Source: Bacteroidales bacterium (GTDB lineage: Bacteria > Bacteroidota > Bacteroidia > Bacteroidales > UBA932). Taken from it: DNA of 64,000 bases. The stretch spans positions 124,001 to 188,000 of the forward strand of contig JAFROX010000009.1 in the NCBI GenBank assembly GCA_017429475.1, in the 5' to 3' direction. The notes under the pieces are model-generated. The model was given only the letters and a program-made list of their open reading frames with translations, was not told where the DNA came from and did not search any database. Below are positions 11,785-30,481 of the stretch, in pieces. The translations under genes were made by a program, and so were the position numbers. The number at the start of each line of letters is the position of its first letter. Positions within the stretch are counted from its first letter, which is position 1.

Positions 11785-11851
11785 GATTTCCGTGCGAATT
11801 TAGAGATAATCAGCGAGAATGCGAAAAGACCGCCTCGCACTGCTGCCTTGT

Positions 11852-12009
11852 CACAGACCTGACTTGCGGCGACCTCCGTTCGCTGACGCTCACTCCGACC
11901 CTCCCATTGCCTGCTTCGTCATCACTGCGTGATAACTTGCATTCAACGGGCCCCTCCCTCTTTACTTCCGAGGGCGGTAGTGTCGCCGGCAAGTCAGTCT
12001 GTTCGGGCG
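11852..12009 (-). repeat. Repeat B, left copy (inverted relative to the copy at 31138-31292)
   Basis: Read on the minus strand this begins CGCCCGAACAGACTGACTTG and ends in GCCGCAAGTCAGGTCTGTG. About 60 bases at one end and about 50 at the other match the copy near 31.2 kb almost without change; only a central stretch of 30-40 bases differs. No protein is convincingly encoded. The left flank (GCCTCGC at about 11832) and right flank (GGGCGAGGC at about 12043) form outer inverted ends. Confidence 0.75.
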
Positions 12010-12059
12010 ACCAGCTACCATTCAGACCTTCTTTCCCGCTAGGGCGAGGCTAAGGTACA

Positions 12060-12230
12060 ACCACCATGACAATAAAATTACTATAGATGTAATTGGTGTT
12101 TTGGCTTCTAATCACTATCTTTATGAGTCTCCTTTTCAAAATGCTTCTGAAATACAACATTTTGAAAAGTTCTTGGAAAACTGGAAACCCGCTCAAAGGG
12201 TAGCCCTGGAGAAATCCAGGGCTTTTTTGT
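12060..12230 (+). other. AT-rich remnant ending in a strong terminator
   Basis: Between repeats B and A lies AT-rich DNA unlike its flanks. One frame on the plus strand reads NHHDNKITIDVIGVLASNHY and on towards FLENWKPAQRVALEKSRAF with no proper start, so it may be the tail of a decayed gene. It ends in a textbook rho-independent terminator at 12202-12228: arms AGCCCTGGA and TCCAGGGCT, loop GAAA, then six T. A terminator without an intact gene in front of it supports the idea that something has been deleted here. Confidence 0.45.
12202..12228 (+). terminator. Rho-independent terminator
   Basis: Perfect 9-base stem AGCCCTGGA / TCCAGGGCT with a GAAA tetraloop and a run of six T. Oriented rightward. 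No intact gene precedes it. Confidence 0.8.
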
Positions 12231-12239: not shown

Positions 12240-12475
12240 CTGCAGCCGCCCCTCCAGGGCAACGCCTACGGGCGCAGAGCTGCGTTCGGGCGGCGGATTT
12301 CACTACGATTCGCCTGTCGCGACGAACTCGCCCTTATCGTCTTCGTCTTACGGCCTGCGGCCTCCAGCCTCGCCGAACGTGGCTCAGACATCATCGCTCC
12401 CGGGCGGCTCACTCCGCTCATCCGCTTCTTCGCCCTCACTTGATGCGCCCTCCGTCGTTCCCTTGAGGAGGCCGC
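12240..12475 (-). repeat. Repeat A, left copy (inverted relative to 24943-25190)
   Basis: The best-conserved core is 12311-12439. Read on the minus strand it matches 24978-25107 over about 130 bases with roughly ten differences, including the unbroken stretch AAGACGAAGACGATAAGGGC and the following GAGTTCGTCGCGACAGGCG. It borders the defence island on its left. Frames through it give low-complexity peptides rich in Arg, Ser and Pro, so I do not treat it as coding. Confidence 0.8.
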
Positions 12476-12541: not shown

Positions 12542-13069
12542 TTAAAGGTTCTTCACTTCAGACAAGAAGGATTGTTCTCTTGCTTTTCGTTCCTTTCTCT
12601 CATATAGATACACTTTCCTCGCTTCCCTTCTTCGTTCTTGGGTAGCTCGAAAGGTTTCCCCATTACGGACTATTTCAGCAGCGACTCGGCCTATTGTCTC
12701 TTCTAAAAATGCCTTCTTAATCTGACACTCCCAAAGAATGATAACACTCCACCCTTTCGCCTCTAGCTTCCGCCAAACTTCTTGATCTCGCTCCTGGTTC
12801 CGTGCAATCTTGGCTATCCAAAATTCGGTGTTTGTCTTGGGAACAGAATAGTATTTACAATCCTTGTGGCCATGCCAGAAGCATCCATTGACAAAAATAA
12901 CAGAACGAAACTTAGGTAATACGATGTCAGGAGTCCCCGGCAATCTCTTATCATTAACCCTATACCGAAAGCCCCGACGCCATAAAGCTTGACGCAGTAA
13001 TAACTCGGGCCCTGTATTCTTAGCCCGATTATGGGACATGCAAGTGAATCTTTGCTCGGGAGTTAGCAT
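12542..13069 (-). CDS. vsr: Very short patch repair endonuclease Vsr
   Basis: 175 residues. The N-terminal MSHNRAKNTGPELLLRQALW, then RLPGTPDIVLPKFRSVIFVNGCFWHGH with its catalytic Asp and zinc-binding Cys/His pattern, and KIARNQERDQEV are diagnostic of Vsr. The enzyme nicks 5' of a T mispaired with G where a 5-methylcytosine has deaminated. That fits its place beside a C5 cytosine methyltransferase: it would repair the mutations the methylase causes. It is transcribed leftward, diverging from the Sau3AI-like gene across a 106-base AT-rich gap. Confidence 0.95.
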   Translation of the reverse strand: MLTPEQRFTCMSHNRAKNTGPELLLRQALWRRGFRYRVNDKRLPGTPDIVLPKFRSVIFVNGCFWHGHKDCKYYSVPKTNTEFWIAKIARNQERDQEVWRKLEAKGWSVIILWECQIKKAFLEETIGRVAAEIVRNGETFRATQERRREARKVYLYERKERKAREQSFLSEVKNL

Positions 13070-13175
13070 TGTGTATGGTCGTCATATAAAGATACATAGA
13101 ATCAGATGGAAATGCTTAATTTTGGTAAAAATCATTCTTCCGATTTCTGATATCTCTCATATTCATCAGTAATTT

Positions 13176-14579
13176 ATGAATTTCAATTACAACAAGGCAG
13201 ATAAATGGTCCATTCTGGAGTATAGCAAGAAACTCCTTGGAAAGACTCTCGAAGAAGCGGTATTTCCAGATATCATTGACCCCAAGCGTGGAAAAGGGCA
13301 GCTGGGCCAATTAGTTGAACTTTATTTCTTCGGCATCGACAACAACAACAGACAAGAGGCCGACTTTCCTGAAGCTGGTCTTGAACTGAAAGTCTCTCCA
13401 CTGAAGGAGCTGAGAAATAAAACTTTAACCATAAAAGAGCGACTTGTCTGCACCATGATAGACTTCACGGAAGACCAGGCAATCCCATTTGAGCAGTCCC
13501 ACATCTACCTCAAATGCGCATTCATGCTAATTCCTTTTTATCTACATAAAGATAGCGTTCCCGTACATAAGCTCAAGTTCATCTATGATGTGCTATGGCA
13601 AATACCTGAGAAGGATTTGCTCATAATGAAACAGGATTACGAAAAAATAATTGCCAAAATCAAAGAAGGCAAAGCCCATGAATTATCCGAAGGCGATACA
13701 ACATACTTGGGGGCATGTAGAAAAGGGCAAAAAGGAGATGCAGACGTTTATTATCGTCTTCCCGATGGCACTATTGCTTCTATTCCCGCACCTAAAAGAG
13801 CTTTTTCCCTGAAGGTTCAATATATGCGCAGTATATTAGATTTTGCGAAGAAGTCAGGTGGCCAGGGATCATATAATATATCTGCACTAGTCCACGGATA
13901 CGGCCCCCATCTTATCAATGAGAGTGAGTTAAAAAAGGATAGTTTTGAACATATCTTACTCAATCGTCTCGAACCTTTTTATGACAAAACCTATCAAGAG
14001 CTATCACAAGACCTGGGTATTGACACACACGCCAAGAGTAAATATTTTCTAATTGCGAACGAGATCCTGACCCAGCGCAAGACTCGTGGAGCTGATGTCA
14101 CCAAATCAGAAGAATTCGTAAAGTCTGGCATTGTCATCAAAACAATACGGCTTAATAAGAATGGGAGGCCAGCTGAAGCAATGTCTTTTGAGAACATCAA
14201 TTACTTCGATATCCTCCAAGAGGATAACTGGTACGACTCACGTCTGTATGACATATTTACCCAGCGGTTCCTATTTGTAGTCTTTCAAGAAGACGCAAAC
14301 AGCGACGTACGGCTAAAGACTGCATTCTTCTGGACTATGCCAGCCCAGGACTTGGAAGAAGCGGAAGCATACTGGCTAAACATCAAAAACGCAGTTAAGA
14401 ATGATACGATAGCTCCTGAGTACTTTTATCGCGAAAGTCATCATAAAAAATTCCATGTGCGCCCCAAAGGAAAAGATTCTGCTGATGTTACTGATAGCCC
14501 ACATGGTGGCATGGTAAAAAAATACTGCTATTGGTTCAATCATGACTATATTAAAAATATTATCATGAATGCCGAATAG
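13176..14579 (+). CDS. Sau3AI/MutH-type restriction endonuclease, probably cutting at GATC
   Basis: 467 residues, close to Sau3AI (about 490). The N-terminal half has the MutH/Sau3AI nuclease pattern: ILEYSKKLLGKTLEEAV, then KGKGQLGQLVELYFFG with the first acidic residue, and EAGLELKVSPLKEL, where E-L-K supplies the D...ExK-type catalytic residues. The C-terminal half resembles the inactive second nuclease-like domain that makes Sau3AI bind two sites. The neighbouring methylase is M.Sau3AI-like, so GATC is the expected target. Start ATG chosen at MNFNYNKADKWS. Base composition is clearly more AT-rich than the flanking chromosome. Confidence 0.9.
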   Translation: MNFNYNKADKWSILEYSKKLLGKTLEEAVFPDIIDPKRGKGQLGQLVELYFFGIDNNNRQEADFPEAGLELKVSPLKELRNKTLTIKERLVCTMIDFTEDQAIPFEQSHIYLKCAFMLIPFYLHKDSVPVHKLKFIYDVLWQIPEKDLLIMKQDYEKIIAKIKEGKAHELSEGDTTYLGACRKGQKGDADVYYRLPDGTIASIPAPKRAFSLKVQYMRSILDFAKKSGGQGSYNISALVHGYGPHLINESELKKDSFEHILLNRLEPFYDKTYQELSQDLGIDTHAKSKYFLIANEILTQRKTRGADVTKSEEFVKSGIVIKTIRLNKNGRPAEAMSFENINYFDILQEDNWYDSRLYDIFTQRFLFVVFQEDANSDVRLKTAFFWTMPAQDLEEAEAYWLNIKNAVKNDTIAPEYFYRESHHKKFHVRPKGKDSADVTDSPHGGMVKKYCYWFNHDYIKNIIMNAE

Positions 14580-14613
14580 CACAATGCTGGTGCAATCCCC
14601 CGCATCTAGTATC

Positions 14614-15903
14614 TTACCTCAGTCTGGATTCGAGTTCCTTTCCCACTTTGGTAATGATACCACAAACCAGGGCATTTCCCATCAAGAAGGCTCTCTTTCC
14701 ATCGTCTATACCTTCCAACATAGTATGATTAGAAGGGAACATATTTAATCGCTCGAGTTCAACAGGGACTAACCGACGCAGGCGACCTGTTTGATCCTGA
14801 ATGACGTGACGACAGCGATCGGGACTCTTACCGCCTTCAGAAGTGATTATGGTTCTTGCTGGTTTGTCTATCGAATCCGGGAAGTCCATACAACCTTCGG
14901 CATAATAGTATTGACCACCATCTTTTCTAGTTCTGGGTTCACGTTTGGCACCCTTATAGTATTTCCAACGAGCAATTTGCGACTCGGGGACATAGAACTC
15001 TTCTGGCACCTCTTCAGGCGAAGCCATGATATCTCGTATTGTCATGGGCTTTTCCTTACAGATTGGAATTGTTGTGGTTGAATAAGCAACGCCATCAACC
15101 ATCACCCCACTACCTTCAAATGGCTTTCCTTTATTTGATTTATTAAACTCTTCTGTTATATCCAGCAATCGAAGATTCGTTTTAACGAATTCATCAGCAC
15201 TATCAAGCAATAAATCATCATTATTGTCTGACAATTTTGTCTTTATTATTTTTAAAGAACTGCTCTCCGCAACTGGGAATGCTTTAGCAAAGACTCCAGA
15301 ATTAATAATCCAATCATTGGGAGTTGTAAATCCATCGGCAATAGGGCTGTTTTTTTGATAACCCAAGATGTATGTACGACGGCGTTTTTGGGGCATAGCA
15401 TAATCAGCCGCATTAATAATTCGCCACTCAACCATATAACCTAACTCGTTAAGGCATTCAAGAATGATTGCAAAATCACGTCCTCTTTGCTTTGCTGGAG
15501 ATAACAGTAAGCGATCAACATTTTCTAGGAAAACTAGTTGCGGACGTTTTTCGCCTTTATCTCTCAGGATACGGTAAATAGACCACCATAAAACCCCCTT
15601 CTTCCCTTCAATACCTTTAGAATTACTTAAAGTAGTCGCAACAGAGTAATCTTGGCAAGGGAACCCGCCAACGAGCATGTCATGATCCGGTATCACTTCA
15701 GTTTTCACCAGATTGATGTCTTCATTAACCACACTACCTTCTCCAAAATTCTTTTCATAAACCATCGCAGCATGCTGAATCTTGGTCGCAGGCTCCCACT
15801 GATTAGCCCAAATAGTCTTAAAGAATTCAGCGTCAGCCCTTTCTAGTCCGACTCTGAAACCGCCTACACCGGCAAATAATTCTATAACCCTTACTTCTTT
15901 CAT
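14614..15903 (-). CDS. DNA (cytosine-5) methyltransferase, M.Sau3AI-like
   Basis: 429 residues with all main C5-methylase motifs: I FAGVGGFRVG, IV GGFPCQDYS (catalytic Cys), VI ENVDRL, VIII QKRRRTY, and X near the end (GNALVCGI). The segments WANQWEPATKIQHA and LSPAKQRGRDFAI are characteristic of the M.Sau3AI subgroup, which modifies the C of GATC. It protects host DNA against the endonuclease encoded convergently next door (stops 35 bases apart). Its promoter is at 15920-15951 and carries a GATC site. The part between motifs VIII and X (about residues 200-290), normally target recognition, is the least conserved. Confidence 0.93.
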   Translation of the reverse strand: MKEVRVIELFAGVGGFRVGLERADAEFFKTIWANQWEPATKIQHAAMVYEKNFGEGSVVNEDINLVKTEVIPDHDMLVGGFPCQDYSVATTLSNSKGIEGKKGVLWWSIYRILRDKGEKRPQLVFLENVDRLLLSPAKQRGRDFAIILECLNELGYMVEWRIINAADYAMPQKRRRTYILGYQKNSPIADGFTTPNDWIINSGVFAKAFPVAESSSLKIIKTKLSDNNDDLLLDSADEFVKTNLRLLDITEEFNKSNKGKPFEGSGVMVDGVAYSTTTIPICKEKPMTIRDIMASPEEVPEEFYVPESQIARWKYYKGAKREPRTRKDGGQYYYAEGCMDFPDSIDKPARTIITSEGGKSPDRCRHVIQDQTGRLRRLVPVELERLNMFPSNHTMLEGIDDGKRAFLMGNALVCGIITKVGKELESRLR

Positions 15904-15919
15904 AAGAAAACTCCGGATT

Positions 15920-15951
15920 CAAAGTTACTGAGTTATTCCTTTCGATCCAAA
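15920..15951 (-). promoter_or_regulatory. Promoter of the C5 methyltransferase, with a GATC in the spacer
   Basis: On the minus strand: TTTG (plus 15948-15951), then 20 bases, then TAACTTTG (plus 15920-15927), the optimal Bacteroidota spacing. A GATC lies at 15944-15947 within the spacer, directly next to the -33 box. Because the methylase is predicted to modify GATC, methylation of its own promoter could feed back on expression. The promoter call is firm; the feedback is inferred. Confidence 0.7.
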
Positions 15952-16001
15952 TAATTTGATAAGAAAGATTCTTCCATTAGGGATGTCTGGTAACAGAATA
16001 A

Positions 16002-16781
16002 TCAATTATGAGGAGCAAAAATATGGTCTAGATGATATTGAAGAAAGACTGGGTTTGGCTTATGCTCTTCGGGCAGCAACATAGGGCTGTGTTCAATTGT
16101 AGCAAAGCATATTTTGTAGAACTCTTCATTTTTATACTCCTTCAATTCCTTAGACAACAGTATTTCATATTCAGGAGATATACCTATTAAACCGGTATCG
16201 AAAGCCTTGTCATATAGAGGAGAAAGACAAATCCCATTCTCAGGATTAAGTCGCTCCTTTTGATTATCAGCCCATGGAATAATATGGCTTGCAATTAAAA
16301 GGCTAGTAAGATTCAATCCTGAAATGGCACAACGAGAATCATAATTGTTTAAAACCATAGTCCTAAATACATTCTGATTAACTCGTTGCCTGATTACCGC
16401 AATTCGATCTTTTCCGGAAACCTTAATATTGGTTAGACCAAGATGCTCGTCAACTTTTTTTCTCTCATATGAAGCCAAATAATACTCGGCATCAAAAAAA
16501 AGTTTCTCTCTGTTAAGCGCATATTCATCCCAAACTGGTTGACATATAGATAGGCCACCTACCATACCTCTACGTCCGGAATTAATTATATAGGGATCAC
16601 ATGCTGCAAAATTGGAGAGTCTTAGAGCGACTGAATTTGCTGACCGACCTATCAGCCGAGCGAGATCGATAACCTCTTTTGTCGTATGATTAAGGCGACC
16701 AAAAGGCAATTGGAAATACAGCGCCAATGTCACAACCAGCTCCGCTTTTGTCCATAATCTTTGTAATCTGAGCTCTGGCAT
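16002..16781 (-). CDS. HNH endonuclease of the putative restriction enzyme family
   Basis: 259 residues. The N-terminal third (WTKAELVVTLALYFQLPFGR followed by LARLIGRSANSVALRLSNFA) is the helical region found in a family of stand-alone HNH nucleases annotated as restriction enzymes. The HNH core is CAISGLNLTSLLIASHIIPW (His-His), with NPENGICLSPLYDKAFDTG completing the H-N-H site at about residues 165-210. It probably cuts DNA as part of the island; whether it needs a modified or unmodified site is unknown. Same strand as the methylase, 98 bases upstream of it, and divergent from the GHKL ATPase operon. Confidence 0.85.
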   Translation of the reverse strand: MPELRLQRLWTKAELVVTLALYFQLPFGRLNHTTKEVIDLARLIGRSANSVALRLSNFAACDPYIINSGRRGMVGGLSICQPVWDEYALNREKLFFDAEYYLASYERKKVDEHLGLTNIKVSGKDRIAVIRQRVNQNVFRTMVLNNYDSRCAISGLNLTSLLIASHIIPWADNQKERLNPENGICLSPLYDKAFDTGLIGISPEYEILLSKELKEYKNEEFYKICFATIEHSPMLLPEEHKPNPVFLQYHLDHIFAPHN

Positions 16782-16884
16782 AATTATTAATTCAAATGTT
16801 GATTATTAAAATGAATACGAATCTGTAATCCTCTATATTCCAACAAGGTACTATTTTGATAATAGCTCTTAATTATTTAAATTT

Positions 16885-16902
16885 ACAAAATAATTATTTT
16901 GT
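16885..16902. promoter_or_regulatory. 18-base perfect palindrome ahead of the GHKL ATPase operon
   Basis: ACAAAATAATTATTTTGT is its own reverse complement and ends 21 bases before the ATG at 16924. It lies in the divergent region between the HNH gene and the ATPase operon, where a repressor could control both. AT-rich palindromes arise easily by chance, so this is tentative. Confidence 0.4.
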
Positions 16903-16923
16903 TTTGGTAGCCAAATAATCATT

Positions 16924-18390
16924 ATGGGCAAAAGAGTTGTTAAGAATTATCCCTCTCCTAGATTAATGGAGACAATCGGTGCAACGAACCAATCGCCACA
17001 AGCAGCGATTGGAGAACTGGTAGCTAACTGTTTTGATGCAAGGTGTGGCGAAGAAAAGCTAAATATTTCAATCGACATGAGGAACGATCAGATAGTCGTA
17101 TTGGATAATGGAAAAGGTATGACTTCTGAAATCCTGGAGAAAGCCGTTTGCATAGGTGAAGATATGTCTAGGTATCTTGAGAGAGGCGAAGGCACTAAAG
17201 GCCACTTTGGAATGGGGTTCAAAACTTCTTGCTCTACGCTGGGTGATTATTATGAAATTTACACTAGGCCCGTTGGTGAGAATATAGAGTATCATACCGC
17301 TTTCGACATTAAAGACTACAGTGTACGTCCGTCCGGTTCTGATGCGTGGGATATTGCCATAGAAGATGGTAGGCCTTCTATCTACTCGCCTTTAAAAAAG
17401 GCTCCTCACGGAACTGCTTTCGTCATTAAGAACCTGAAGATTAACGAGTTCCCCGTAAGTGCCGCGCTTGAGTATCTTGGAGATGCTTTCAAGGGACATA
17501 TCGAAGGCGGTGATATCATCACAGTAATTGATGAAAATGATAGTCACATTGCCAAGCCAAAGACGTACAACTTTGTCAAGGGGACAAAAGTCATAATTGA
17601 CGAGAAGTTTGGACCCGGGAATAAATACCACATTACGGGTTGGGTCGCCATAGACAAACAGACTCACAACGATGGTCTATATGGTTTTAATATCTACCGC
17701 AGGGGCCAATTAGTCGTCTCGCACGACAAGAGCTGGTTCACTGCTCACTTGATGACTAGCCGTATCATAGGTGAGGTGAATATGGATTTCCTCGATGCAA
17801 CATTCTACAAACAGGGTGTGCAACAGTCTGAGGATTGGGAATTTGTGAGAATCCATATGAAAGATTATCTTAAGGGTGTAGTGGCTGCCTCTCGTAACCT
17901 TAGCAGAGGACACAACATCAATAAACCGTCTGAAAAGAAAGCTGTTCTTGAGCAGTTAGGCAAAGAGTATGTAATCGAGAATGAAGGTGCTGATACTCCG
18001 GCAACAGAGCCAAACAACGAACCCAGCGAGGATAATAAACCGAGCGTCAGTATTAACGACTCTGTGAAAAGCATTGTGACTGAAAAGTCGCTTTTCTTAG
18101 AAGATGGGAGTGAAATCCATATTACTTATTTAGAGAAGGAAGAAGATGGACACGAAGTAGGACCCTTTGACTACATTCTTGATATGTATCAGGAGCCGCA
18201 AGAACTGCAGGTCATTGTCTATAAAGACCATTCGCTTTGGCGAAAAAAGATTGATGGCGAAGTGCGTAGAATAATTGCAACTTCCGATGCTATTTATCGC
18301 TCTCTAGTAGAGGAATTGGGCGTCGATAGCAGGAAGGCATTAAAGATTAGAAATGAATGGGTCTCACAGAGGACTGAATCAATGAAGTAG
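16924..18390 (+). CDS. GHKL ATPase of the prokaryotic MORC/paraMORC type
   Basis: 488 residues. The ATP-binding motifs are complete: N-box ELVANCFDA (Glu31, Asn35, Asp38), G1 box DNGKGM (61-66) and G2 box KGHFGMGFKT (92-101). An S5-like region follows (YGFNIYRRGQLV near 255-270). The C-terminal 150 residues are acidic and of unknown fold. Prokaryotic MORC/paraMORC ATPases are known from restriction-modification neighbourhoods together with superfamily II helicases and nucleases, which is exactly the context here. They are thought to reshape DNA or DNA-protein complexes through ATP-driven dimer closure. First gene of an operon; the next gene starts two bases after its stop. Confidence 0.88.
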   Translation: MGKRVVKNYPSPRLMETIGATNQSPQAAIGELVANCFDARCGEEKLNISIDMRNDQIVVLDNGKGMTSEILEKAVCIGEDMSRYLERGEGTKGHFGMGFKTSCSTLGDYYEIYTRPVGENIEYHTAFDIKDYSVRPSGSDAWDIAIEDGRPSIYSPLKKAPHGTAFVIKNLKINEFPVSAALEYLGDAFKGHIEGGDIITVIDENDSHIAKPKTYNFVKGTKVIIDEKFGPGNKYHITGWVAIDKQTHNDGLYGFNIYRRGQLVVSHDKSWFTAHLMTSRIIGEVNMDFLDATFYKQGVQQSEDWEFVRIHMKDYLKGVVAASRNLSRGHNINKPSEKKAVLEQLGKEYVIENEGADTPATEPNNEPSEDNKPSVSINDSVKSIVTEKSLFLEDGSEIHITYLEKEEDGHEVGPFDYILDMYQEPQELQVIVYKDHSLWRKKIDGEVRRIIATSDAIYRSLVEELGVDSRKALKIRNEWVSQRTESMK

Positions 18391-18392
18391 CC

Positions 18393-19034
18393 ATGGACAA
18401 GATTGATGCGTTGGAATTAATTAGAAAGACTTGGGATTCGAAGAATCTGAGTCTGGAAGAGAAGATTGTTACAATCTCTGAAGCTTTCTATTCGGTCGGT
18501 CTTGACATAGCCACTACAGCTAACTTTATTAAGACCACACCTGCAGAACTCTATGCATTTTTGTCTTTGAGTAATCTTGACGAAGACATGATTAGGATGA
18601 TTTCTGATGCTAATCCTCCTAAGACAACGTGGCCATTATTATCAAGTGGCAATGATGACGAGATTAAGAAGGCTTTATCCGCGCTGTCCGATACATCCAG
18701 ATCAAAGAATGAATCAGTCAGTGAGTTTATATATCAACAGATGATTGAAGTGGCTGGATCTTCTTCTGAGCAGCTACTTTCTGAAATTACAGGAGGAGAA
18801 ATGTTTGCCCTGGCGAAAAAGGCAAAGAACTTCACGTCGGTGAATCCAAGCGCCATCAAGTTCTTAAATAGCTTGGCCGGGCAAAAGAAATGGGGCAAAG
18901 CATTAAGCGAAAAACAGATAGCCACTTTGAAGGATATTCTTAATAACCTTGCAGACAATAAAGTCATCCAACGCAACAGTATTGATGGCGACGAAGAGTT
19001 GTGTGATAAGGTATTGGACGCTCTCGGAAGATAG
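18393..19034 (+). CDS. Hypothetical helical protein between the ATPase and helicase genes
   Basis: 213 residues, predicted almost wholly helical, acidic, with no signal, membrane span or catalytic motif. TTANFIKTTPAELYAFLSLSNL (about 40-62) could be a helix-turn-helix. It starts two bases after the ATPase stop and ends two bases before the helicase start, so its amount is tied to both. I do not recognise the family. An adaptor or recognition subunit of the ATPase-helicase machine is the simplest guess. Confidence 0.75.
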   Translation: MDKIDALELIRKTWDSKNLSLEEKIVTISEAFYSVGLDIATTANFIKTTPAELYAFLSLSNLDEDMIRMISDANPPKTTWPLLSSGNDDEIKKALSALSDTSRSKNESVSEFIYQQMIEVAGSSSEQLLSEITGGEMFALAKKAKNFTSVNPSAIKFLNSLAGQKKWGKALSEKQIATLKDILNNLADNKVIQRNSIDGDEELCDKVLDALGR

Positions 19035-19036
19035 GT

Positions 19037-22000
19037 ATGGGGCTCAAGGACATAGATATCAAAGTCAGTTATGCTGGTAAAGGAGGAGAGATTCTTAAAA
19101 ATTTTCTTTTGCCTTCGATAGATGCGAGTGTCCACTATGACCGCGTCACAAGTTTTTATACAGTTGAATCATTGTTGGCCATCTCCCAGGGGATAGATTC
19201 CCTATACCGGAAGCATGGAAGGATGAGGTTGATTATAGGTATTCACAGTTTCCCCGGAGAATTCCTTGATGCTGTAACGAGAAGGAAATACCTTGAAGAG
19301 CAAATAGCGGAGATAAGGAACAATCTGAGATTAGGTATTGAATCCATCAAAGATAGTCTAGAGAGACAGCGGTTGGCAACCGTAGCCTGGATGATTGAAG
19401 ATGGCCTTCTTGAGATAAAAACTGCAGATGTTATAGGAGAGGGCATTTTCCATCCTAAGACATTGCTGTTAGCCGATGAAAATGGAGATAAAATCGTGGC
19501 GATTGGTAGCCCCAATGAGACGAGCTCAGGATTAGGCGGTAACTTTGAGCAGGTCATGGTGGCTAAATCTTGGGAGCAACCTGATGCCGTGGCCGTCCAA
19601 GAAGAATTCTTCAATTCTCTATGGAATAATAATCTTGAAGATGCCATTACCCTTGATGTTACGGAAGGTACCGCAGAGATTATCAAGCAAGGATTAGGCA
19701 CTTATCCCAACCCGTCCAAGTCAAATCATTCTACAAAGAATGATTTGATTAAGGTGTCCTCGACCATGTTGTCAAACTTCTTTGTCTCGGGTGACATCCC
19801 TGCCTTGTATGTGCATCAAGAACGCGCGGTTATTGACGCACTTTCCAGATGGCCGGTTAGAGTGTTATTCTCTGACGAGGTTGGCTTGGGAAAGACTTTC
19901 GAAGTCGCAGCTACAATGGTTTTCATGGTAAAGTATTGCGGCGTAAAGAGGGTGATTATACTTACACCGAAATCCGTTTTGAAACAGTGGCAGGATGAAC
20001 TGAAAGAGCACTTCAGGCTGAATGTATGGAGGTATGATTCCGGTAGCAAATCTTATATTGACTCTTTCGACCACGTAAAGTATGTAACCGGTTCAAATCC
20101 TATTGGAAAAGGGTCTCCTGACATAATACTTATGTCGGCTCAGTTTGCGCGAGGCTCCGGTAACAATGGTGATATTTTCTCCAGAAATGGAGCCTGTCTG
20201 CCAGACTTACTTATTCTTGATGAAGCACATTCGGCGAGAGTAAGTAAAGACATCTCCGGAAGCAGTAAAAAGACGCAAATCTATGCGATGCTGGAGAGGG
20301 TCTCGGGGAAGATTCCTCACATGATATTAGCGACAGCCACCCCCATGCAAAAAGAAGCTGGAGAGTACCATTCGCTTCTTAAGCTCCTTGGTTTGCCGAA
20401 GGCTTGGCAAAAGACGCCGGTCTATATGAAATCATTAGACCTAATTTCATGTTCCGAGTATCCTAGCCTTACAGATTTGAGTGGCGCGGCGAAAATGCTC
20501 AACATGACTATGGAGGGTATGAAGCCATCCATTGATAGATTAAACGAAGAACAGAAAGGAGTATTAAACCGAGTAATTGAACTCAAGGATGGAGACGTGA
20601 CATTCCTAACTGATTATGTACGTGACAACTGGTCAACCATACGTCAGTTGCTAGTTCTCTTGCATCCTGCCCATTTACTGACGGTCAGAAATACAAGGCG
20701 CTCTCTATCTGAAAAAGGTTACAAATTTCCCAATAGGAAGTTGACCCCGATTTCAATTCCAGACTCCATGGAAATAGAGATGTTCTATGACCATGTAAAC
20801 AGCTATCTTTCAAAAAGATGTTTCTCCATAGAAGAGATTCTTTTCCCGGACAGAAAGATATCTATCGGCTTTGTGCGAGTGAGTTACCAGCAAAGGGTTG
20901 CCTCGTCATTGTTTTCATGTAAGAAGAGCCTGGAAAGGCGCCTAGAGAAAATCAACAACCTTAAGAAGACTTTAGAACGATATCTCAACGCCAATGGGGC
21001 ATCCCTTTACAACCCGACAGGACTTGATGACATCGATCTCGAAGATTTACTTGATGAAGGTTACGATGATACGTTTGATGTAAATCTTTCCAACGTGAAT
21101 ATTCCGGAGCTGCGCCAAGCCATCGCTCTTGAATCAACTGCAATTTCGCCTCTCATAAAGCGAGCCGGTGAACTGTTGGATAATCGCAAAGACCTTAAGA
21201 TTAAGGAATCAATCACCCTCGCAAAAAAGAGCCTAGACGCTAATGACAAAGTCTTGGTCTTTTCCAGGTATACTGATACAGTTGATGCCCTTCTTAACGA
21301 ATTCAATCTTCTAGGACTGAACAAATTATATAAATACGGCGTGTACACAGGAGCAACGTCATGTATCGTCTGGAATGGGAAAGAGTGGCCTTGTGACAAG
21401 AATGACCTCAAGCGGGGTCTATTCTCAGGAGAGATAAAAATCGTATTCTGTTCTGATGCTGCTTCAGAAGGCTTGAACCTTCAGGCAGCAAGAGTCTTAA
21501 TCAATGTTGATGTCCCTTGGACTCCAGCCAGACTTGAGCAGCGAGTTGGCCGTATTGCCCGTTTGGGCCAGGTTGCGGATGAAGTTGTCATTTACAATGT
21601 ATGGTATCCCCATAGTATTGAGGCTCGCATGTACCATAGGATACAGACACGCCTTGAGAATAGCAACCTCGCCATAGGAGAGTTCCCTGATGTCGTTGCA
21701 AAGAAGATTAGGGCTGCAATCATGGAAGATGCCGATAGTGACAACCTGGGCCTTAATGAGTTGCTCGAGATCCGTAATTCTAAACAGGTGGCCGCTCTTG
21801 AAGAACTGTGGAGTCAAACTGGTAAAGGGACCGAGAGTGACTTGTTTAGAGAGCGCCTACTGAAAATCTGTTCAAGGTTCCTCAAAGAAGCGGACACGGA
21901 ACTGGGAGGAATAATCAAAGTGCTTGTGGCAACGGACGGGACACTATTCAAGTTGTCAGCAAAAAGTGGCTTAGCAGAAAGTATTTCTCTAAAGGCTAGA

Positions 22001-22267
22001 GTCTGGGAACACATAAAGTGTTTTGACGATTCCGTATCCGTAGTGAAGGATAAGAATCTCAGACCCGCATATTTCACCATCAATAATGATGGAGTGACAA
22101 TCGAGTTGAAGCATTCAAGTATTTACAAAGTCATCCTAAAGGAAGAGCTCGGCGGAGAAGATGTGTTGATGGGCTATCCTCCGATGCTACCAAATAGCAA
22201 ACGGTTGGATTTATCCTATGCAGTCGAATGTGACATAAAACCTGCACCCGTGTACTGGGTTGAATAA
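19037..22267 (+). CDS. PLD-fused SNF2-type helicase
   Basis: 1076 residues. Residues 1-210 form a phospholipase D-like (HKD) domain; the visible half-motif is FHPKTLLLADENGDKIVAIGS with H-x-K, followed by the typical SPNETSSG. The helicase core has motif I DEVGLGKT (Lys286), motif II DEAH (395-398), motif III ATATPMQ, and VI QRVGRIARLGQ, the SNF2/RapA pattern. A long insertion (about 470-720) between the two RecA-like lobes is coiled-coil rich. A translocase with its own nuclease-like domain suits a defence effector. It is the third gene of the ATPase operon; a small possible nuclease gene begins 10 bases after its stop. Confidence 0.92.
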   Translation: MGLKDIDIKVSYAGKGGEILKNFLLPSIDASVHYDRVTSFYTVESLLAISQGIDSLYRKHGRMRLIIGIHSFPGEFLDAVTRRKYLEEQIAEIRNNLRLGIESIKDSLERQRLATVAWMIEDGLLEIKTADVIGEGIFHPKTLLLADENGDKIVAIGSPNETSSGLGGNFEQVMVAKSWEQPDAVAVQEEFFNSLWNNNLEDAITLDVTEGTAEIIKQGLGTYPNPSKSNHSTKNDLIKVSSTMLSNFFVSGDIPALYVHQERAVIDALSRWPVRVLFSDEVGLGKTFEVAATMVFMVKYCGVKRVIILTPKSVLKQWQDELKEHFRLNVWRYDSGSKSYIDSFDHVKYVTGSNPIGKGSPDIILMSAQFARGSGNNGDIFSRNGACLPDLLILDEAHSARVSKDISGSSKKTQIYAMLERVSGKIPHMILATATPMQKEAGEYHSLLKLLGLPKAWQKTPVYMKSLDLISCSEYPSLTDLSGAAKMLNMTMEGMKPSIDRLNEEQKGVLNRVIELKDGDVTFLTDYVRDNWSTIRQLLVLLHPAHLLTVRNTRRSLSEKGYKFPNRKLTPISIPDSMEIEMFYDHVNSYLSKRCFSIEEILFPDRKISIGFVRVSYQQRVASSLFSCKKSLERRLEKINNLKKTLERYLNANGASLYNPTGLDDIDLEDLLDEGYDDTFDVNLSNVNIPELRQAIALESTAISPLIKRAGELLDNRKDLKIKESITLAKKSLDANDKVLVFSRYTDTVDALLNEFNLLGLNKLYKYGVYTGATSCIVWNGKEWPCDKNDLKRGLFSGEIKIVFCSDAASEGLNLQAARVLINVDVPWTPARLEQRVGRIARLGQVADEVVIYNVWYPHSIEARMYHRIQTRLENSNLAIGEFPDVVAKKIRAAIMEDADSDNLGLNELLEIRNSKQVAALEELWSQTGKGTESDLFRERLLKICSRFLKEADTELGGIIKVLVATDGTLFKLSAKSGLAESISLKARVWEHIKCFDDSVSVVKDKNLRPAYFTINNDGVTIELKHSSIYKVILKEELGGEDVLMGYPPMLPNSKRLDLSYAVECDIKPAPVYWVE

Positions 22268-22277
22268 TGCCGTTATT

Positions 22278-22868
22278 ATGAAAACAAGATTATTGGCAAG
22301 CCCGTGGACGAAACCTCAGCTAACTCGTGAAACTGCAGAAGCAATCGAGCTTCTCCATGACGATGTGTGGAAAGAAGCATCTGTATTGTTTGCTGCTGAG
22401 CGGGATGCGAAATTAAGGTCCGGTCAGAGCGCCCCCAAGGGAATGCAGCGATATTTGAATGACGTCATTACTAAGCGCTTTACATCAAAGGGATGGATTG
22501 GTGAAGCTGGATACTTCTTCAAAGAAAAGACCTGGGTAAGAGTCACTTTTAGGCACCAGATGAGTCTGGGAGCAGATATTCTCGATGCCATTAAAGTGTG
22601 TAAAAAAGAAGGGATGCAACAAGCTGTTATCCTTGCAGCAAATAGAAAAACGCTGAATCTGGTTACGCCTAATGACGCCGCAGCGATTGTGTCGTTTGAG
22701 AAGTTGGAAAGGGAAATCATGAGTCTCAACGGTGCCCTTGATATTCCCTTATTGTTTGGTGAACTAACTCCGTTGTCCAGCGCATCAAGCGACATCAATG
22801 AAGAATTAAAGAAGGCAAGGCCGAGAGATATTTCAGTGCCCCAGCACAAGAGGAAATTAACCCTTTGA
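22278..22868 (+). CDS. Unknown protein, possible small restriction-type nuclease
   Basis: 196 residues from the ATG at 22278; a TTG at 22260 inside the helicase gene is less likely. The middle, GWIGEAGYFFKEKTWVRVTF followed by RHQMSLGADILDAIKVCKKE and GMQQAVILAANRKTL, has the strand-turn-helix-strand order seen in compact restriction nucleases such as the BglII/BstYI group, whose members recognise GATC-centred sites. A convincing catalytic E-x-K/Q is not obvious, so activity is doubtful. It is last in the operon with the GHKL ATPase and helicase, and probably acts with them. Function inferred, weakly. Confidence 0.6.
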   Translation: MKTRLLASPWTKPQLTRETAEAIELLHDDVWKEASVLFAAERDAKLRSGQSAPKGMQRYLNDVITKRFTSKGWIGEAGYFFKEKTWVRVTFRHQMSLGADILDAIKVCKKEGMQQAVILAANRKTLNLVTPNDAAAIVSFEKLEREIMSLNGALDIPLLFGELTPLSSASSDINEELKKARPRDISVPQHKRKLTL

Positions 22869-22978
22869 TTGCGTGATTCTATTCTACCACATTGGTTTGG
22901 TTATCCGCTGGAGATTGATTCAGGTTTCCCCGATGAACACGCATTAAGGCAGAATAATAAACTAACAATTTGATAATT

Positions 22979-24862
22979 ATGATTGAAAACGAAGAATTAT
23001 TGGCAACCTATACTCTATTGTCGTATATTAGAGAGACTTTAGGTATCGAAAAGCGTGACACCTTAGCATATGTGTTCGTCCCACTGGTTAGGGAGGGTAT
23101 TTCTGCCGTCTTTTCTGCAAATGGTTTCAAGGAAGTAAAAGGGAAAGATTTCACAGAAATTCAATCACATGTAAACAATCTTTTTAAGATTGTTATTCCG
23201 ATACCTGTACTCGAAACAATAATGCCCATTTTGAGTAAAGAAGCAGGAGACGCGTTTCAATTGAATAAGGATCATTCTTTTATTATCAAGTCTAAAGTTG
23301 GCAGCTCGATTATGGGCGACTACCGTAATCAAAAGGGAAGAATAACACTATTAGAAAAGGACTATATAAGGTTTTGCCAAGGGGAAGGTGTTCAACCTGA
23401 ATTTGATGGACTCATCTCCTTCATTCAAGATCAAAAGAATAGATTATTTGATAAGGTTAATACAACCAAGATAGAGGACCAAAGCTACCATGTCTCTAAG
23501 TATATTAACTTTTTGAAAAACAAAAAGAACGCTCACTATGAGACTGTTTGTGATTTGTATTTAGGAGGCATTATATCGTCTTACCTAAAGTTTCAGGTCA
23601 AAAGACGTATTGTTGATGCAGATCTTCTCATTGACACGAACTTTTATACAAGTTTGATGAATTTGAATACAGAAGAGTCGTATGCAACTTGTAAGCAGCT
23701 ATATGATATTACTATGGCAATGGGGTTTCGGTACAAGATACTGGAAACAACAATTGACCAGATTAAAATATTGTTCAGCAGCAAGTTGTCAGAGTTCAAC
23801 AAAAAAGATGTTTTTACGGTACTCAATGATGCTGACATTCTTGCCGCATGCGACAGAAGAGGGCTGAGTTATTCTGATCTTCAGGCCTATAAAGATGGGG
23901 TATTGGAGAGTTTGAGTAAGTTGGGGGTTACAACCCTTTATAAAAGCAATATTCCTCAATTAGTGGATAACGTTAAGAAATCCAGAGAATTAAAGAGCTT
24001 AACATGCATTAGAGGTAATTATGACAGCGCATTCAATGATTTGCTCGCGGAAGAATACGTTGGCTTTAAAAGAGCCCGAGTGCCCATTACAGAATTTATA
24101 GATGCTAACTGCTGGTTCTTGACCAATTCGTATTCTACCAATAAGTCTGAATTAGCACTTCCTGTTTGCCAAAGGCGGAAGATTAATGCTGCAGATTTAC
24201 TCGTTCTATTATGGTATGCTAATCCATCATTAAGTATTGGTAACGAAAAAGATATGCTAGCGGCAACCAGCCTTGGTGCAAATGTATTGAGATACCGAAC
24301 CGAGAAGTTGCCAACGGAGAAAGTAATCACTGATTTGACAAACAAAATTGCCAAACTTCAACAAAGCAATTTAATTACGGAGCAATCGCTTGCTAAACTA
24401 TGTATTAGGATGTCGGAGGGGTGCATCGATAATACCGAGGCGGAACGATTAGTTACGCTCACCTCGGCTGAATTTCTTGATTATGTAGATAAAATACAAG
24501 TTCAAAACGCGGCATATACAGATGCCCAGGAGAAAATAGATACCCTTCAGGAAAAGCTCGATGAGAGCAAACTAGAAAGATATAAAGAGAGGGTTCGAGG
24601 GGAAATCTGGAAGAGACGAACTTGGGCTGTTGTTTATGTAATTATTATTTTTGCAACTTATTTCATTGCCGTATCGTCGTTGATTGATAAAATACCAAAT
24701 GGTATCTTGAGGTATAGTGTTCATTGTGTGTATTGGCTGGCATTGACATTTGGCCTTAATTGGTTTTCACACTCCTATTTCCTCGATGGGATTGTTTCTA
24801 TCTTCAACTATCAACGCATTTTTGACAAGCTGATGAAGAAAGAAAAAAAGAATAACGGATAG
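22979..24862 (+). CDS. PIN-like domain protein with C-terminal coiled coil and two membrane spans
   Basis: 627 residues from the ATG at 22979. Residues about 220-400 look like a large PIN-type nuclease: DADLLIDTNFYTSLMNL supplies the first Asp, RYKILETTIDQI a second acidic strand, and CWFLTNSY the late strand typical of PIN folds. A coiled coil follows at about 500-540 (DAQEKIDTLQEKLDESKLER), then two membrane spans at about 550-605. A nuclease tethered to the membrane next to a restriction island would suit an abortive-infection effector, but this is inference. A 110-base AT-rich gap separates it from the operon, so it may have its own promoter. It is the most AT-rich gene in the window. Confidence 0.7.
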   Translation: MIENEELLATYTLLSYIRETLGIEKRDTLAYVFVPLVREGISAVFSANGFKEVKGKDFTEIQSHVNNLFKIVIPIPVLETIMPILSKEAGDAFQLNKDHSFIIKSKVGSSIMGDYRNQKGRITLLEKDYIRFCQGEGVQPEFDGLISFIQDQKNRLFDKVNTTKIEDQSYHVSKYINFLKNKKNAHYETVCDLYLGGIISSYLKFQVKRRIVDADLLIDTNFYTSLMNLNTEESYATCKQLYDITMAMGFRYKILETTIDQIKILFSSKLSEFNKKDVFTVLNDADILAACDRRGLSYSDLQAYKDGVLESLSKLGVTTLYKSNIPQLVDNVKKSRELKSLTCIRGNYDSAFNDLLAEEYVGFKRARVPITEFIDANCWFLTNSYSTNKSELALPVCQRRKINAADLLVLLWYANPSLSIGNEKDMLAATSLGANVLRYRTEKLPTEKVITDLTNKIAKLQQSNLITEQSLAKLCIRMSEGCIDNTEAERLVTLTSAEFLDYVDKIQVQNAAYTDAQEKIDTLQEKLDESKLERYKERVRGEIWKRRTWAVVYVIIIFATYFIAVSSLIDKIPNGILRYSVHCVYWLALTFGLNWFSHSYFLDGIVSIFNYQRIFDKLMKKEKKNNG

Positions 24863-24942: not shown

Positions 24943-25190
24943 CCCAGGCGTCAGCATGCGGCGTTAAGGGCACTGGCGTGAGGGCGAAGAAGCGGATGAG
25001 CGGAGTTCCGCCGCCCGGGAGCGATGCTGTTTGAGCCACGTTCGGCGAGGCTGAAGGTCGCAGACCGGAAGACGAAGACGATAAGGGCGAGTTCGTCGCG
25101 ACAGGCGGACGCAGCGCTAGACGCCGCCCGAGCGTCTTTGTGCCCTCTGAGCCGCTGGGCTGTGCCAAGGCTGCGCTGCAAAACTCGCCG
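24943..25190 (+). repeat. Repeat A, right copy (inverted relative to 12240-12475)
   Basis: The conserved core at 24978-25107 matches the left copy on the opposite strand. Its leading module, CAGGCGTCAG, then GCGGCGT, then AAGGGCACTGGCG (24943-24977), also precedes repeat B at 31059-31084, showing that A and B share a part. It marks the right edge of the AT-rich defence island. The 340 bases from 24863 to 25202 hold nothing else that I can see. Confidence 0.8.
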
Positions 25191-28882: not shown

Positions 28883-28934
28883 AACCGATAAATCTGCGAA
28901 GTACCCCTTCACTACGGCAGCCAATCTAAAAGAG

Positions 28935-29007
28935 TTGCGGGAGGCGGATTCGAACCGCCGATCCAGGGATTATGAGACCCGGATGTTTACCACTACACCA
29001 TCCCACA
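28935..29007 (-). tRNA. tRNA-Met(CAT)
   Basis: Acceptor TGTGGGA/TCCCGCA, short D loop, anticodon loop CTCATAA, T arm GGCGG-TTCGAAT-CCGCC, A at 73. The anticodon stem has only three good pairs, so function is a little uncertain. CAT could also belong to an Ile tRNA modified at C34. CCA is not encoded. Confidence 0.8.
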
Positions 29008-29048
29008 ATATAAACTATTGTTTTAAAAGGCCGGGTAACACCGGCTTG

Positions 29049-29123
29049 GTGGACCCTGTGGGAATCGAACCCACGACTCCCGCCTTAAAAGGGCGGTGCT
29101 CTACCAACTGAGCTAAAAGTCCA
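29049..29123 (-). tRNA. tRNA-Lys(TTT)
   Basis: Canonical cloverleaf: acceptor TGGACTT/GGGTCCA, D arm AGCTCAGTTGGTAGAGC, anticodon stem-loop CCGCC-CTTTTAA-GGCGG, T loop TTCGATT. A truncated paralogue of the winged-helix gene abuts its 5' end. Confidence 0.92.
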
Positions 29124-29281
29124 TTATTAAGGAGCAAGGTCGGTTTGTTCATTTCCATCCAAGCCTTGACTGCGGCAGAGCATATGCTTTCGTCGTCCTG
29201 GCCTTCGTCATAAAGCGACCCGACCAAATCGATTATGTATTGTGGCAACTGCAACGATTCAGGTTTTAGATACGGCGGCAA
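29124..29281 (-). pseudogene. Truncated paralogue of the winged-helix protein
   Basis: About 50 codons (PPYLKPESLQLPQYIIDLVG, then SLYDEGQDDESICSAAVKAW) resemble the start of the neighbouring 29333-29854 gene (MLDDDTRALVLAVKDLLKDL, then RARGLNDDAIDALI). There is no ATG, and the frame runs into tRNA-Lys, so the 3' part is lost. A promoter-like TACCTTTG is still present on the minus strand at 29279-29286. This is a third, decayed member of the family. Confidence 0.5.
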
Positions 29282-29313
29282 AGGTAGAGGATGCCTGCAA
29301 GCCGCAGAAATCT

Positions 29314-29328
29314 CTGCAAGACTTGCAG
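29314..29328. repeat. CTGCAAGnCTTGCAG palindrome, copy 4
   Basis: Perfect 7-base arms around A, four bases beyond the stop of the 29333-29854 gene. Shares the longer left context GAAATCTCTGCAAG with copy 5. A half copy (CCTGCAAG, then CCGCAG) lies at about 29294-29307. Confidence 0.65.
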
Positions 29329-29332
29329 GCTT

Positions 29333-29854
29333 CTACACGGGCAAAGTCACCAGATCTCTGGAAACGGCTATTCTGTAGACACCGTCCCTTCCCCTCACGA
29401 TGGCGTACTGGTCGGCAGCAATCTTGCCCACCTTCTCCACCAGTTTCCTCTTGATCCTCGAGATGTTGGTCTGCAAGGTAGCCCGATCGTCATCGCAGAG
29501 GGCGTCGACTGCAGCCTCTATCTGGTCGGGATCGTCATAGACGGTCTGCTTGCGATAGATGTCGCAGAGTTCGTCATAGTACATCCAGATGTCATCGGCT
29601 GAAATACCCTTGTCGTACCTCAGAAGAAGGGTGTAAAGGGTCCTTTCTATCGGGTTGAGATAGATTGTCACATTGCCGTAATCAGGCAGGGTGAGAATAC
29701 CGTTTCTGTCCAGGACAATTCTTCCCGGTCCGTCCCTTCTGATGAGGGCATCGATCGCATCGTCGTTGAGGCCCCTCGCCCTGAGATCCTTCAGAAGGTC
29801 TTTTACCGCAAGGACGAGTGCCCTGGTATCGTCATCAAGCATCAACTGTTCCAT
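29333..29854 (-). CDS. Small winged-helix protein, paralogue of 25923-26969
   Basis: 173 residues from the ATG at 29854; a longer frame to 29890 would use a weaker start that crosses a palindrome. The N-terminal 35 residues are one or two helices (RALVLAVKDLLKDLRARGLN); then LDRNGILTLPDYGNVTIYLN leads into an OmpR/PhoB-like winged helix with ATLQTNISRIKRKLVEKVG and QYAIVRGRDGVYRIAVSRDL. No receiver domain is present. Probably a DNA-binding regulator. CGTGTCCGTCGGACACG, a near-perfect palindrome at 29863-29879, sits directly upstream and is a candidate operator. It interrupts the tRNA cluster, lying between tRNA-Lys and tRNA-Cys. Confidence 0.75.
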   Translation of the reverse strand: MEQLMLDDDTRALVLAVKDLLKDLRARGLNDDAIDALIRRDGPGRIVLDRNGILTLPDYGNVTIYLNPIERTLYTLLLRYDKGISADDIWMYYDELCDIYRKQTVYDDPDQIEAAVDALCDDDRATLQTNISRIKRKLVEKVGKIAADQYAIVRGRDGVYRIAVSRDLVTLPV

Positions 29855-29862
29855 AGCAAAGG

Positions 29863-29879
29863 CGTGTCCGTCGGACACG
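29863..29879. promoter_or_regulatory. CGTGTCC/GGACACG palindrome ahead of the small winged-helix gene
   Basis: 17 bases with 8-base complementary arms around a single central base, ending nine bases before the ATG at 29854. Its position between likely promoter and start fits autoregulation by the winged-helix protein. Not tested. Confidence 0.45.
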
Positions 29880-30213: not shown

Positions 30214-30217
30214 GTTG

Positions 30218-30288: not shown

Positions 30289-30293
30289 ATCAG

Positions 30294-30381: not shown

Positions 30382-30387
30382 TTATAG

Positions 30388-30475: not shown

Positions 30476-30481
30476 TTAGTG

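What the first reader, a model, noticed from the sequence alone, without database searches (positions are those of the whole stretch)
12542..24862. Composite defence island: Sau3AI-type restriction-modification, Vsr, HNH, and a MORC-like ATPase/PLD-helicase operon
Seen: nine genes in an AT-richer block, including a complete GATC-type restriction pair plus Vsr, and a four-gene operon (GHKL ATPase, unknown helical protein, PLD-SNF2 helicase, possible small nuclease) with gaps of only 2, 2 and 10 bases. Known: prokaryotic MORC/paraMORC ATPases occur next to superfamily II helicases and nucleases in restriction neighbourhoods. Inference: the operon is a defence machine of its own, using the methylation mark or the restriction cuts. 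The 213- and 196-residue proteins are of unknown family and would be its undescribed parts.
Basis: partly seen in the sequence, partly recalled or inferred. Interest (0 to 1): 0.78.

Follow-up and report, generated by a model that had tools for sequence, protein, structure and literature searches.

The report
MORC-helicase restriction operon keyed to GATC
A probable rumen-type bacterium carries a rare set of genes (a MORC-like ATPase, a helicase fused to a nuclease-like domain and two small proteins of unknown family) that turns up in both bacteria and archaea together with one particular kind of DNA-methylating restriction system, which makes it a good candidate for an undescribed energy-driven defence against phages.

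Summary
In detail: nine ORFs at 12.5-24.9 kb, GC 40-44% against 49-60% outside, with a complete Sau3AI-type module (REase, C5 methylase, Vsr), an HNH protein and a tight four-gene operon. New here: (1) the MORC-like ATPase, the 213-aa protein and the HKD-SNF2 helicase form a trio, same order in 8 of 8 members found (bacteria and archaea); the 196-aa protein is in 5 of 8. (2) All 8 genomes or records also carry a related C5 methylase and 7 of 8 a Sau3AI-family REase, against 3 of 148 other genomes of the window's order. (3) Operon and R-M module have different histories: silent-site divergence .28-.36 against .71-.75, and a supported tree conflict; partners are swapped yet stay together. (4) One member keeps the methylase beside the operon with no Sau3AI match in its draft genome, so the operon is probably itself a methylation-keyed restriction effector. 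(5) Two inverted copies of an interspersed repeat bracket the island. MORC-helicase R-M operons were predicted in 2008; the libraries used do not name this set. The 213- and 196-aa proteins have no family; the 'small nuclease' guess is unsupported. A new variant of a known kind.

The parts
12311..12439 (+). Left inverted repeat, a copy of an interspersed repeat
   Evidence: arms 12311-12408/25010-25107 (94% complementary) and 12411-12439/24978-25006 (100%); 88.6% over 158 nt to the right copy, other copies elsewhere on the contig
12542..13069 (-). vsr, very-short-patch mismatch endonuclease
   Evidence: PF03852 1.2e-30, TIGR00632 141 bits
13176..14579 (+). Sau3AI/MutH-family REase (GATC specificity inferred from the family)
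   Evidence: NF040973 397 bits (cut-off 300); MutH domain 8.6e-34
14614..15903 (-). C5-cytosine methylase of the Sau3AI module; proposed mark-setter
   Evidence: PDLC03329 1.1e-154, PF00145 5.5e-60; related methylase in all 8 genomes or records with the operon
16002..16781 (-). HNH endonuclease; accessory, found at 2 of 8 loci
   Evidence: HNH_2 8.7e-12; PDLC04132 1.8e-82; 34% relative in L098
16924..18390 (+). MORC-like GHKL-S5 ATPase, core gene 1
   Evidence: HATPase_c_3 and Morc6_S5; family profile finds MORC3 at 8.4e-15; GHKL motifs kept in 7 of 7 aligned
18393..19034 (+). 213-aa protein, core gene 2; C-terminal part resembles the tail of an AIPR protein
   Evidence: alignment; one search match in G084 at 1.1e-4 (23 bits); that protein is AIPR
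19037..22267 (+). HKD(PLD)-SNF2/RapA-type helicase, core gene 3
   Evidence: PLD_Helicase 1.1e-57, PbeA 8.5e-51; NF042964 2.4e-88 (297.5 bits, cut-off 1100); motifs kept in 7 of 7 aligned (broken copy of L034 left out)
22278..22868 (+). 196-aa protein, optional gene 4
   Evidence: the four relatives are 59-95% identical to it; no family
22979..24862 (+). 627-aa protein with a C-terminal stretch that reads as membrane-spanning; probably a passenger
   Evidence: No library hit; not found at the other members' fetched loci
24978..25107 (-). Right inverted repeat

Best explanation
The MORC-like/213-aa/HKD-helicase operon (with the 196-aa protein in 5 of the 6 bacterial members) is an ATP-dependent restriction effector that shares one C5 methylase with the Sau3AI REase. 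Proposed steps: the methylase marks host DNA, probably at GATC (inferred from the Sau3AI family). The MORC-like dimer clamps and loops DNA that lacks the mark, with the 213-aa (and 196-aa) protein as adaptor or site reader (inferred). The SNF2 motor translocates and its N-terminal HKD domain cuts (motifs shown intact, activity inferred). Where Sau3AI is also present the cell has two restriction enzymes on one mark; where Sau3AI is missing (L035) the operon is the restriction arm. Shown: the genes, their conserved order, the constant company of one methylase family, and swapping of partners. Inferred: complex formation, GATC as the site, cutting, anti-phage effect.
For: Trio in the same order in 8 of 8 members, MORC 36-96% identical to the window's; members were found through MORC or the 213-aa protein, not through R-M genes. 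Related C5 methylase in all 8 genomes or records: at the locus in 6 of 8, about 10 kb away on the same plasmid in Haladaptatus, on another contig in Methanomassiliicoccus. In L035, L038 and L098 the methylase ends 40-44 nt upstream of MORC on the same strand; in Butyrivibrio the four operon genes, an AspBHI-like gene, vsr, Sau3AI and methylase form one run of eight same-strand genes. Sau3AI family in 7 of 8, against 3 of 148 other genomes of the window's order. Window against L034: fourfold-site divergence .71-.75 in vsr/Sau3AI/methylase.28-.36 in the four operon genes. Tree conflict: L035's methylase pairs with that of a quartet-less Sau3AI module (L126, 84% identical, FastTree support 1.0), its MORC with window/L034 (78-79%, support 1.0); L038 and L098 are closer in methylase (76%) and Sau3AI (72%) than in MORC (55%). 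L035's genome gave no Sau3AI-family match. HKD, GSxNET and helicase motifs kept in 7 of 7 aligned.
Against: No activity has been measured. Eight members is a small sample (window and L034 are near-copies in the operon), and the genome scan that found five of them was capped and used two peptide patterns only. Absence of Sau3AI in L035's genome rests on a draft MAG of untold completeness. In Haladaptatus the R-M genes lie beyond a DISARM-like trio, the Sau3AI homologue is short (283 aa) and the methylase could belong to something else. In Methanomassiliicoccus the two parts are on different contigs with no overlap. The 3-of-148 background is from the window's order alone, while most members are from other groups. 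L034's helicase is split by a frame break. Other GHKL proteins also sit near C5 methylases: 7 of 72 non-member loci scanned show a methylase match. Defence genes cluster in islands anyway.
Confidence: 0.55

Rival explanations
1. The operon is a helper of Sau3AI: it takes DNA cut at GATC, and the helicase-HKD protein unwinds and degrades it, much as MutL-MutH-UvrD work in mismatch repair (Sau3AI is MutH-like, MORC distantly MutL-like).
For: Sau3AI family in 7 of 8 genomes or records; Sau3AI carries a MutH domain; the MORC-like protein has weak MutL similarity (mutl 7.7e-5; MutL 0.008).
Against: L035 keeps methylase and quartet with no Sau3AI match in its draft genome. Sau3AI modules also exist without the quartet (L126), so Sau3AI does not need it.
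Confidence: 0.2
2. An independent defence system that lodges next to R-M genes by chance or by island clustering.
For: Separate histories of operon and R-M module; interspersed repeats flank the island; DISARM-like genes next to the archaeal copy.
Against: The companion is the same methylase family in 8 of 8 genomes or records, and a Sau3AI family member in 7 of 8, against 3 of 148 for Sau3AI in the background.
Confidence: 0.13
3. A silencing or compaction machine: the MORC-like ATPase condenses unmarked invading DNA, as eukaryotic MORCs do, without cutting it.
For: Best solved relatives are MORC3 and MORC4. [quoted passage not shown]
Against: HKD-type residues are kept in 7 of 7 aligned helicases, and PMC10853773 argues for cleavage in Pbe systems (passages).
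Confidence: 0.1

Closest known systems
MORC/paraMORC R-M operons of Iyer, Abhiman and Aravind 2008 (PMC2292703; parts 1-3 of 4 read, figures not held)
   Same: GHKL-S5 ATPase with SF2 helicase (SWI2/SNF2 is one of three types), C5 methylase, Vsr, HNH or other nuclease; laterally mobile
   Different: The text read names no Sau3AI partner and no 213- or 196-aa protein, and in running text mentions an HKD domain only with Rad25-like helicases; the arginine of the MORC S5 signature is glutamine here
CglI / NgoAVII ATP-dependent R-M (PMC5737866 abstract; PMC4267653 abstract start in a search listing)
   Same: Methylase plus endonuclease plus helicase-like ATPase, with NTP-dependent cutting
   Different: There endonuclease and helicase-like ATPase are separate proteins; the abstracts mention no MORC-like ATPase
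PbeABCD / CxC-ABC systems (PMC6459918, PMC10853773, passages)
   Same: PbeA is an HKD-SF2 helicase fusion, and PbeA is the second-best PADLOC family for the window helicase
   Different: Pbe has a CxC ABC ATPase, a DndE-like protein and a 66-aa protein; none was matched by the nine proteins
BREX-related type-2 BR systems (PMC12839542, passages)
   Same: HKD-SNF2 helicase effector plus methylase; 25-27% helicase relatives on 8 further plasmids, 7 of them haloarchaeal, one hit spanning a DUF1156 gene
   Different: They have a DUF499 ATPase, an N6-methylase with DUF1156 and DUF3780; here a MORC-like ATPase and a C5 methylase
MZA (MzaB ATPase)
   Same: The GHKL ATPase matches MzaB weakly (the Haladaptatus member 1.2e-11); an AIPR protein shares a C-terminal stretch with the 213-aa protein. 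That MZA contains an AIPR protein is recalled
   Different: MzaB match far below cut-off (27 bits against 850); no AIPR hit among the nine proteins

Membership tests
Sau3AI-type R-M module | Sau3AI-family REase over the curated cut-off | tested here: met
   NF040973 397 bits, cut-off 300; a D..ELK stretch (DFPEAGLELK) read in the sequence
Sau3AI-type R-M module | C5 methylase beside it | tested here: met
   convergent neighbour 34 nt away
Sau3AI-type R-M module | Specificity for GATC | not testable with these tools
   Inferred from the family; recalled
MORC family (Iyer 2008) | GHKL domain with ATP motifs plus S5 domain | tested here: met
   (HATPase_c_3 54.6 bits over 25; Morc6_S5 28.2 over 26.2)
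MORC family (Iyer 2008) | S5 signature GhXhhpXXRhl | tested here: not met
   GFNIYRRGQLV in the window: the arginine is glutamine in all 8 members. Hence 'MORC-like'
MORC-SF2 helicase R-M operons (Iyer 2008) | MORC-type ATPase with SF2 helicase in one operon, near methylase and nuclease genes | tested here: met
PbeABCD | CxC ABC ATPase (PbeC), DndE-like PbeD, small PbeB | tested here: not met
   Only PbeA among the PADLOC hits shown for the nine proteins
BREX-related type-2 BR | DUF499, DUF1156 N6-methylase, DUF3780 | tested here: not met
   None among the Pfam hits of the nine proteins
DISARM | DrmA, DrmB (DUF1998), DrmC | tested here: not met
   Only helicase similarity to DrmD/DrmA and methylase similarity to DrmMII; no DUF1998
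MZA | MzaB over cut-off, and an AIPR gene | tested here: not met
   27 bits against 850; no AIPR hit
NF042964 phospholipase D-like anti-phage protein | Score over 1100 bits | tested here: not met
   297.5 bits
BglII-fold REase (for the 196-aa protein) | Profile similarity to PF09195 members | tested here: inconclusive
   Hand alignment suggestive; family mean reached by 8 of 2000 shuffles, but hhalign and hmmsearch not significant

The most novel reading that the evidence does not exclude
The quartet is a new type of ATP-dependent restriction enzyme: a MORC-like clamp plus an HKD-SNF2 motor plus dedicated adaptors, reading C5 methylation at GATC. It can share a methylase with an ordinary type II enzyme, or take over the methylase and replace that enzyme. 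The 196-aa protein would be a catalytically dead REase-fold site reader. This would give prokaryotic MORC-like proteins a defined, testable job.
Probability: 0.3. Interest if true: 0.78.

Novelty: new variant of a known kind. Interest (0 to 1): 0.6.

Why it matters
MORC ATPases help to silence transposons in plants and mice (abstracts listed), and it was proposed in 2008 that eukaryotes got them from bacterial R-M systems (PMC2292703); bacterial MORCs were still called biochemically poorly understood in 2021 (PMC8011034, passages). This set is compact (three or four genes), keeps company with one methylase family, and includes a natural arrangement with methylase but apparently no Sau3AI. That makes the old proposal testable with one plasmid. 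It would also show that one methylation mark can be served by exchangeable restriction arms.

Tried and rejected
Structure prediction of the 213- and 196-aa proteins could not be run, so no fold search was made. Sequence profiles against the PDB gave nothing for the 196-aa protein (best E 0.17) and only designed armadillo repeats at E 0.03 or worse for the 213-aa protein, taken as compositional. Pfam and PHROGs gave nothing significant for either (best E 0.03, for the Haladaptatus 213-aa relative).

BglII-like fold for the 196-aa protein: by eye, an ungapped 45-residue match with the active-site positions replaced (those positions are recalled). Tests used 8 of the 9 fetched BglII-family sequences (5 of 9). 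hhalign score 20.97 against a maximum of 21.44 and a 95th percentile of 17.51 in 100 shuffles; position-matrix family mean reached by 8 of 2000 shuffles, single members equalled or beaten by 8 to 83 of 1520 background ORFs; hmmsearch ranks 20 to 123 among 1550 sequences, and global hhalign score reached by 120 of 200 shuffles. Kept only as a lead.

Contig ends of the archaeal MAG were compared to see whether the Sau3AI-methylase run and the operon are contiguous: no shared k-mers, so not claimed. Viral contigs: MORC, 213-aa and 196-aa queries gave no member (the 8 hits match at most 145 residues and were not examined further). Plasmids: one member, Haladaptatus. Phages: no match for the 196-aa protein (the other proteins were not tried there). 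Dropped before counting members: 43 of the 48 loci (at most 268 of 488 residues matched), the non-self hits (partial GHKL matches), G084 (tail of an AIPR protein) and G1281 (a piece at a contig start, E 6.3e-11, no MORC seen beside it).

Literature searches for a named set. One search (Sau3AI and MORC, whole words) found 0 papers in the held library, which lacks most subscription journals.
Full report
Observation. The nine ORFs, their strands and the tight spacing are as described. The block is AT-rich, 0.40-0.44 GC against 0.49-0.60 in the rest of the window. Library scans identify Vsr, a Sau3AI-family REase over its curated cut-off, a C5 methylase, an HNH protein, a GHKL-S5 (MORC-like) ATPase and an SNF2/RapA-type helicase with an N-terminal HKD-type domain (Pfam PLDc_2 below cut-off, PADLOC PLD_Helicase and PbeA strong); the 213-, 196- and 627-aa proteins match nothing significant. 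Two inverted copies of a repeat, 88.6% identical over 158 nt, stand about 100 nt outside the outermost genes (12311-12439 and 24978-25107). The repeat is interspersed: beside these two, one partial copy in the window and three in L133 were seen in the 344 kb examined (window plus 14 stretches of its contig). The island thus looks like a cassette bracketed by recombinogenic repeats; that it moved this way is inference.

Members. A tblastn search of plasmids gave one relative, a Haladaptatus plasmid with MORC-213-helicase in the same order. One more member came from a search of the family of the Coriobacteriaceae member with the 213-aa profile. All 8 carry MORC, the 213-aa protein and the helicase in that order (L034's helicase is split by a frame break); 5 of 8 carry the 196-aa protein directly after the helicase. 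In the family of L038 the 196-aa profile hits 1 of 140 genomes, the one (G1160, L098) that also has the operon; L038's genome has the trio but no hit. The set is rare. 213-aa matches, centre genomes counted in: 2 of 99 relatives (own and G016), 2 of 393 of the order (own, and one AIPR tail), 1 of 348 in Butyrivibrio's family (itself), 2 of 140 in L038's family (itself and G1160), 2 of 243 in the archaeal phylum (itself and a fragment).

Company. A related C5 methylase lies at the locus in 6 of 8 members; in L035, L038 and L098 it ends 40-44 nt upstream of MORC on the same strand, and in Butyrivibrio the four operon genes, an AspBHI-N/Mrr protein, Vsr, Sau3AI and methylase are one run of eight genes. 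In Haladaptatus, methylase and a short MutH/Sau3AI homologue (283 aa) lie about 10 kb away, beyond a DISARM-like trio. In Methanomassiliicoccus a Vsr-Sau3AI-methylase run sits near the end of another contig. Over genomes or records, a Sau3AI-family match is present in 7 of 8, against 3 of 148 other genomes of the window's order: two over the cut-off, one of these with stops, and one in pieces. The converse does not hold: L126 has Sau3AI-methylase-Vsr with no quartet nearby, and its genome G456, which by handle number was among the 393, had no 213-aa match there.

Histories. Between window and L034 the fourfold-degenerate sites differ at 30/42, 93/126 and 102/137 in vsr, Sau3AI and methylase, but at 60/176, 24/74, 97/267 and 21/76 in MORC, the 213-aa gene, the helicase part compared and the 196-aa gene. 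The two blocks therefore parted at different times although the layout is alike. Trees agree: L035's methylase (with a C-terminal extension) joins quartet-less L126 at 84% identity with support 1.0, while its MORC joins window and L034 with support 1.0; conversely L038 and L098 are closer in methylase (76%) and Sau3AI (72%) than in MORC (55%). Units that recombine apart and still end up together point to a functional tie rather than to hitch-hiking.

Mechanism. L035 is the key case: its methylase resembles that of a Sau3AI-type module, its draft genome gave no Sau3AI match, and the methylase is followed after 44 nt by the quartet. The simplest reading is that the quartet can be the restriction arm for the same mark. 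The motor and HKD motifs are intact in 7 of 7 helicases aligned (L034's broken copy left out), and the GHKL motifs of the ATPase are kept in the 7 aligned members. The 2008 paper proposed DNA looping by MORCs between recognition and cleavage sites; a SNF2 motor with an HKD nuclease could then cut. The 213-aa protein is a likely adaptor: its C-terminal part matches the tail of an AIPR protein (E 1.1e-4), a family that the 2008 paper lists in R-M operons. Its N-terminal half reads like a helix-turn-helix, which was not tested. For the 196-aa protein a dead BglII-like fold was considered and not established.

Against the reading. No biochemistry exists; the sample is 8, two of them near-copies; L035's lack of Sau3AI rests on a draft genome; the archaeal linkage is loose; the background rate comes from one order; 7 of 72 non-member loci with GHKL matches also show a C5-methylase match nearby, as the 2008 theme predicts; and island clustering of defence genes is common.

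Known or new. MORC with SF2 helicase, C5 methylase, Vsr and HNH was predicted as an R-M theme in 2008 (PMC2292703, parts 1-3 of 4, figures not seen). This set adds a defined core with an unnamed protein family, an HKD-SNF2 motor, a specific partner (Sau3AI-type modules), partner swapping, and a probable Sau3AI-free form. It is not Pbe, BREX-related, DISARM or MZA by the tests listed. PADLOC and NCBIfam give no set-specific name, and no held paper contains both 'Sau3AI' and 'MORC' as whole words.

Noticed in passing
window 12311-12439 and 24978-25107; partial copy 34712-34797; L133 near 8548, 9017 and 15595: Interspersed repeat of about 160-180 bp; two inverted copies bracket the island closely. 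A second repeat (11840-12060, 31138-31302) also recurs.
   Followed up: partly
window 22979-24862: 627-aa protein with no family; a stretch LLIDTNFYTS recalls PIN nucleases and the C-terminus reads as membrane-spanning; not found at the other members' loci.
   Followed up: partly
L036 16023-17228: 401-aa AspBHI-N plus Mrr-catalytic protein (AspBHI is modification-dependent, recalled) between the quartet and vsr in the Butyrivibrio run.
   Followed up: no
L124 9336-15359: DISARM-like trio (helicase, DUF1998 protein, PLD protein) directly after the archaeal operon on the Haladaptatus plasmid.
   Followed up: no
L087 1-1743: AIPR protein whose C-terminal tail matches the C-terminal part of the 213-aa protein.
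   Followed up: partly
L098 15210-15631: Six CRISPR-like repeats (74-79 nt spacing) at the contig end near the operon.
   Followed up: no
L098 3142-4857: 571-aa protein with a weak GIY-YIG match (below cut-off) and a Schlafen-group-3 helicase domain between Sau3AI and methylase.
   Followed up: no
L034 5081-5995 and 11750-14978: AbiH gene beside the sister island; the helicase gene there is split into two ORFs by a frame break.
   Followed up: no
L035 6947-8740 and L126 8126-9862: C5 methylases with a shared C-terminal extension of unknown family.
   Followed up: no
window 28934-30789: Ten tRNA genes on the minus strand, about 4 kb beyond the island.
   Followed up: no
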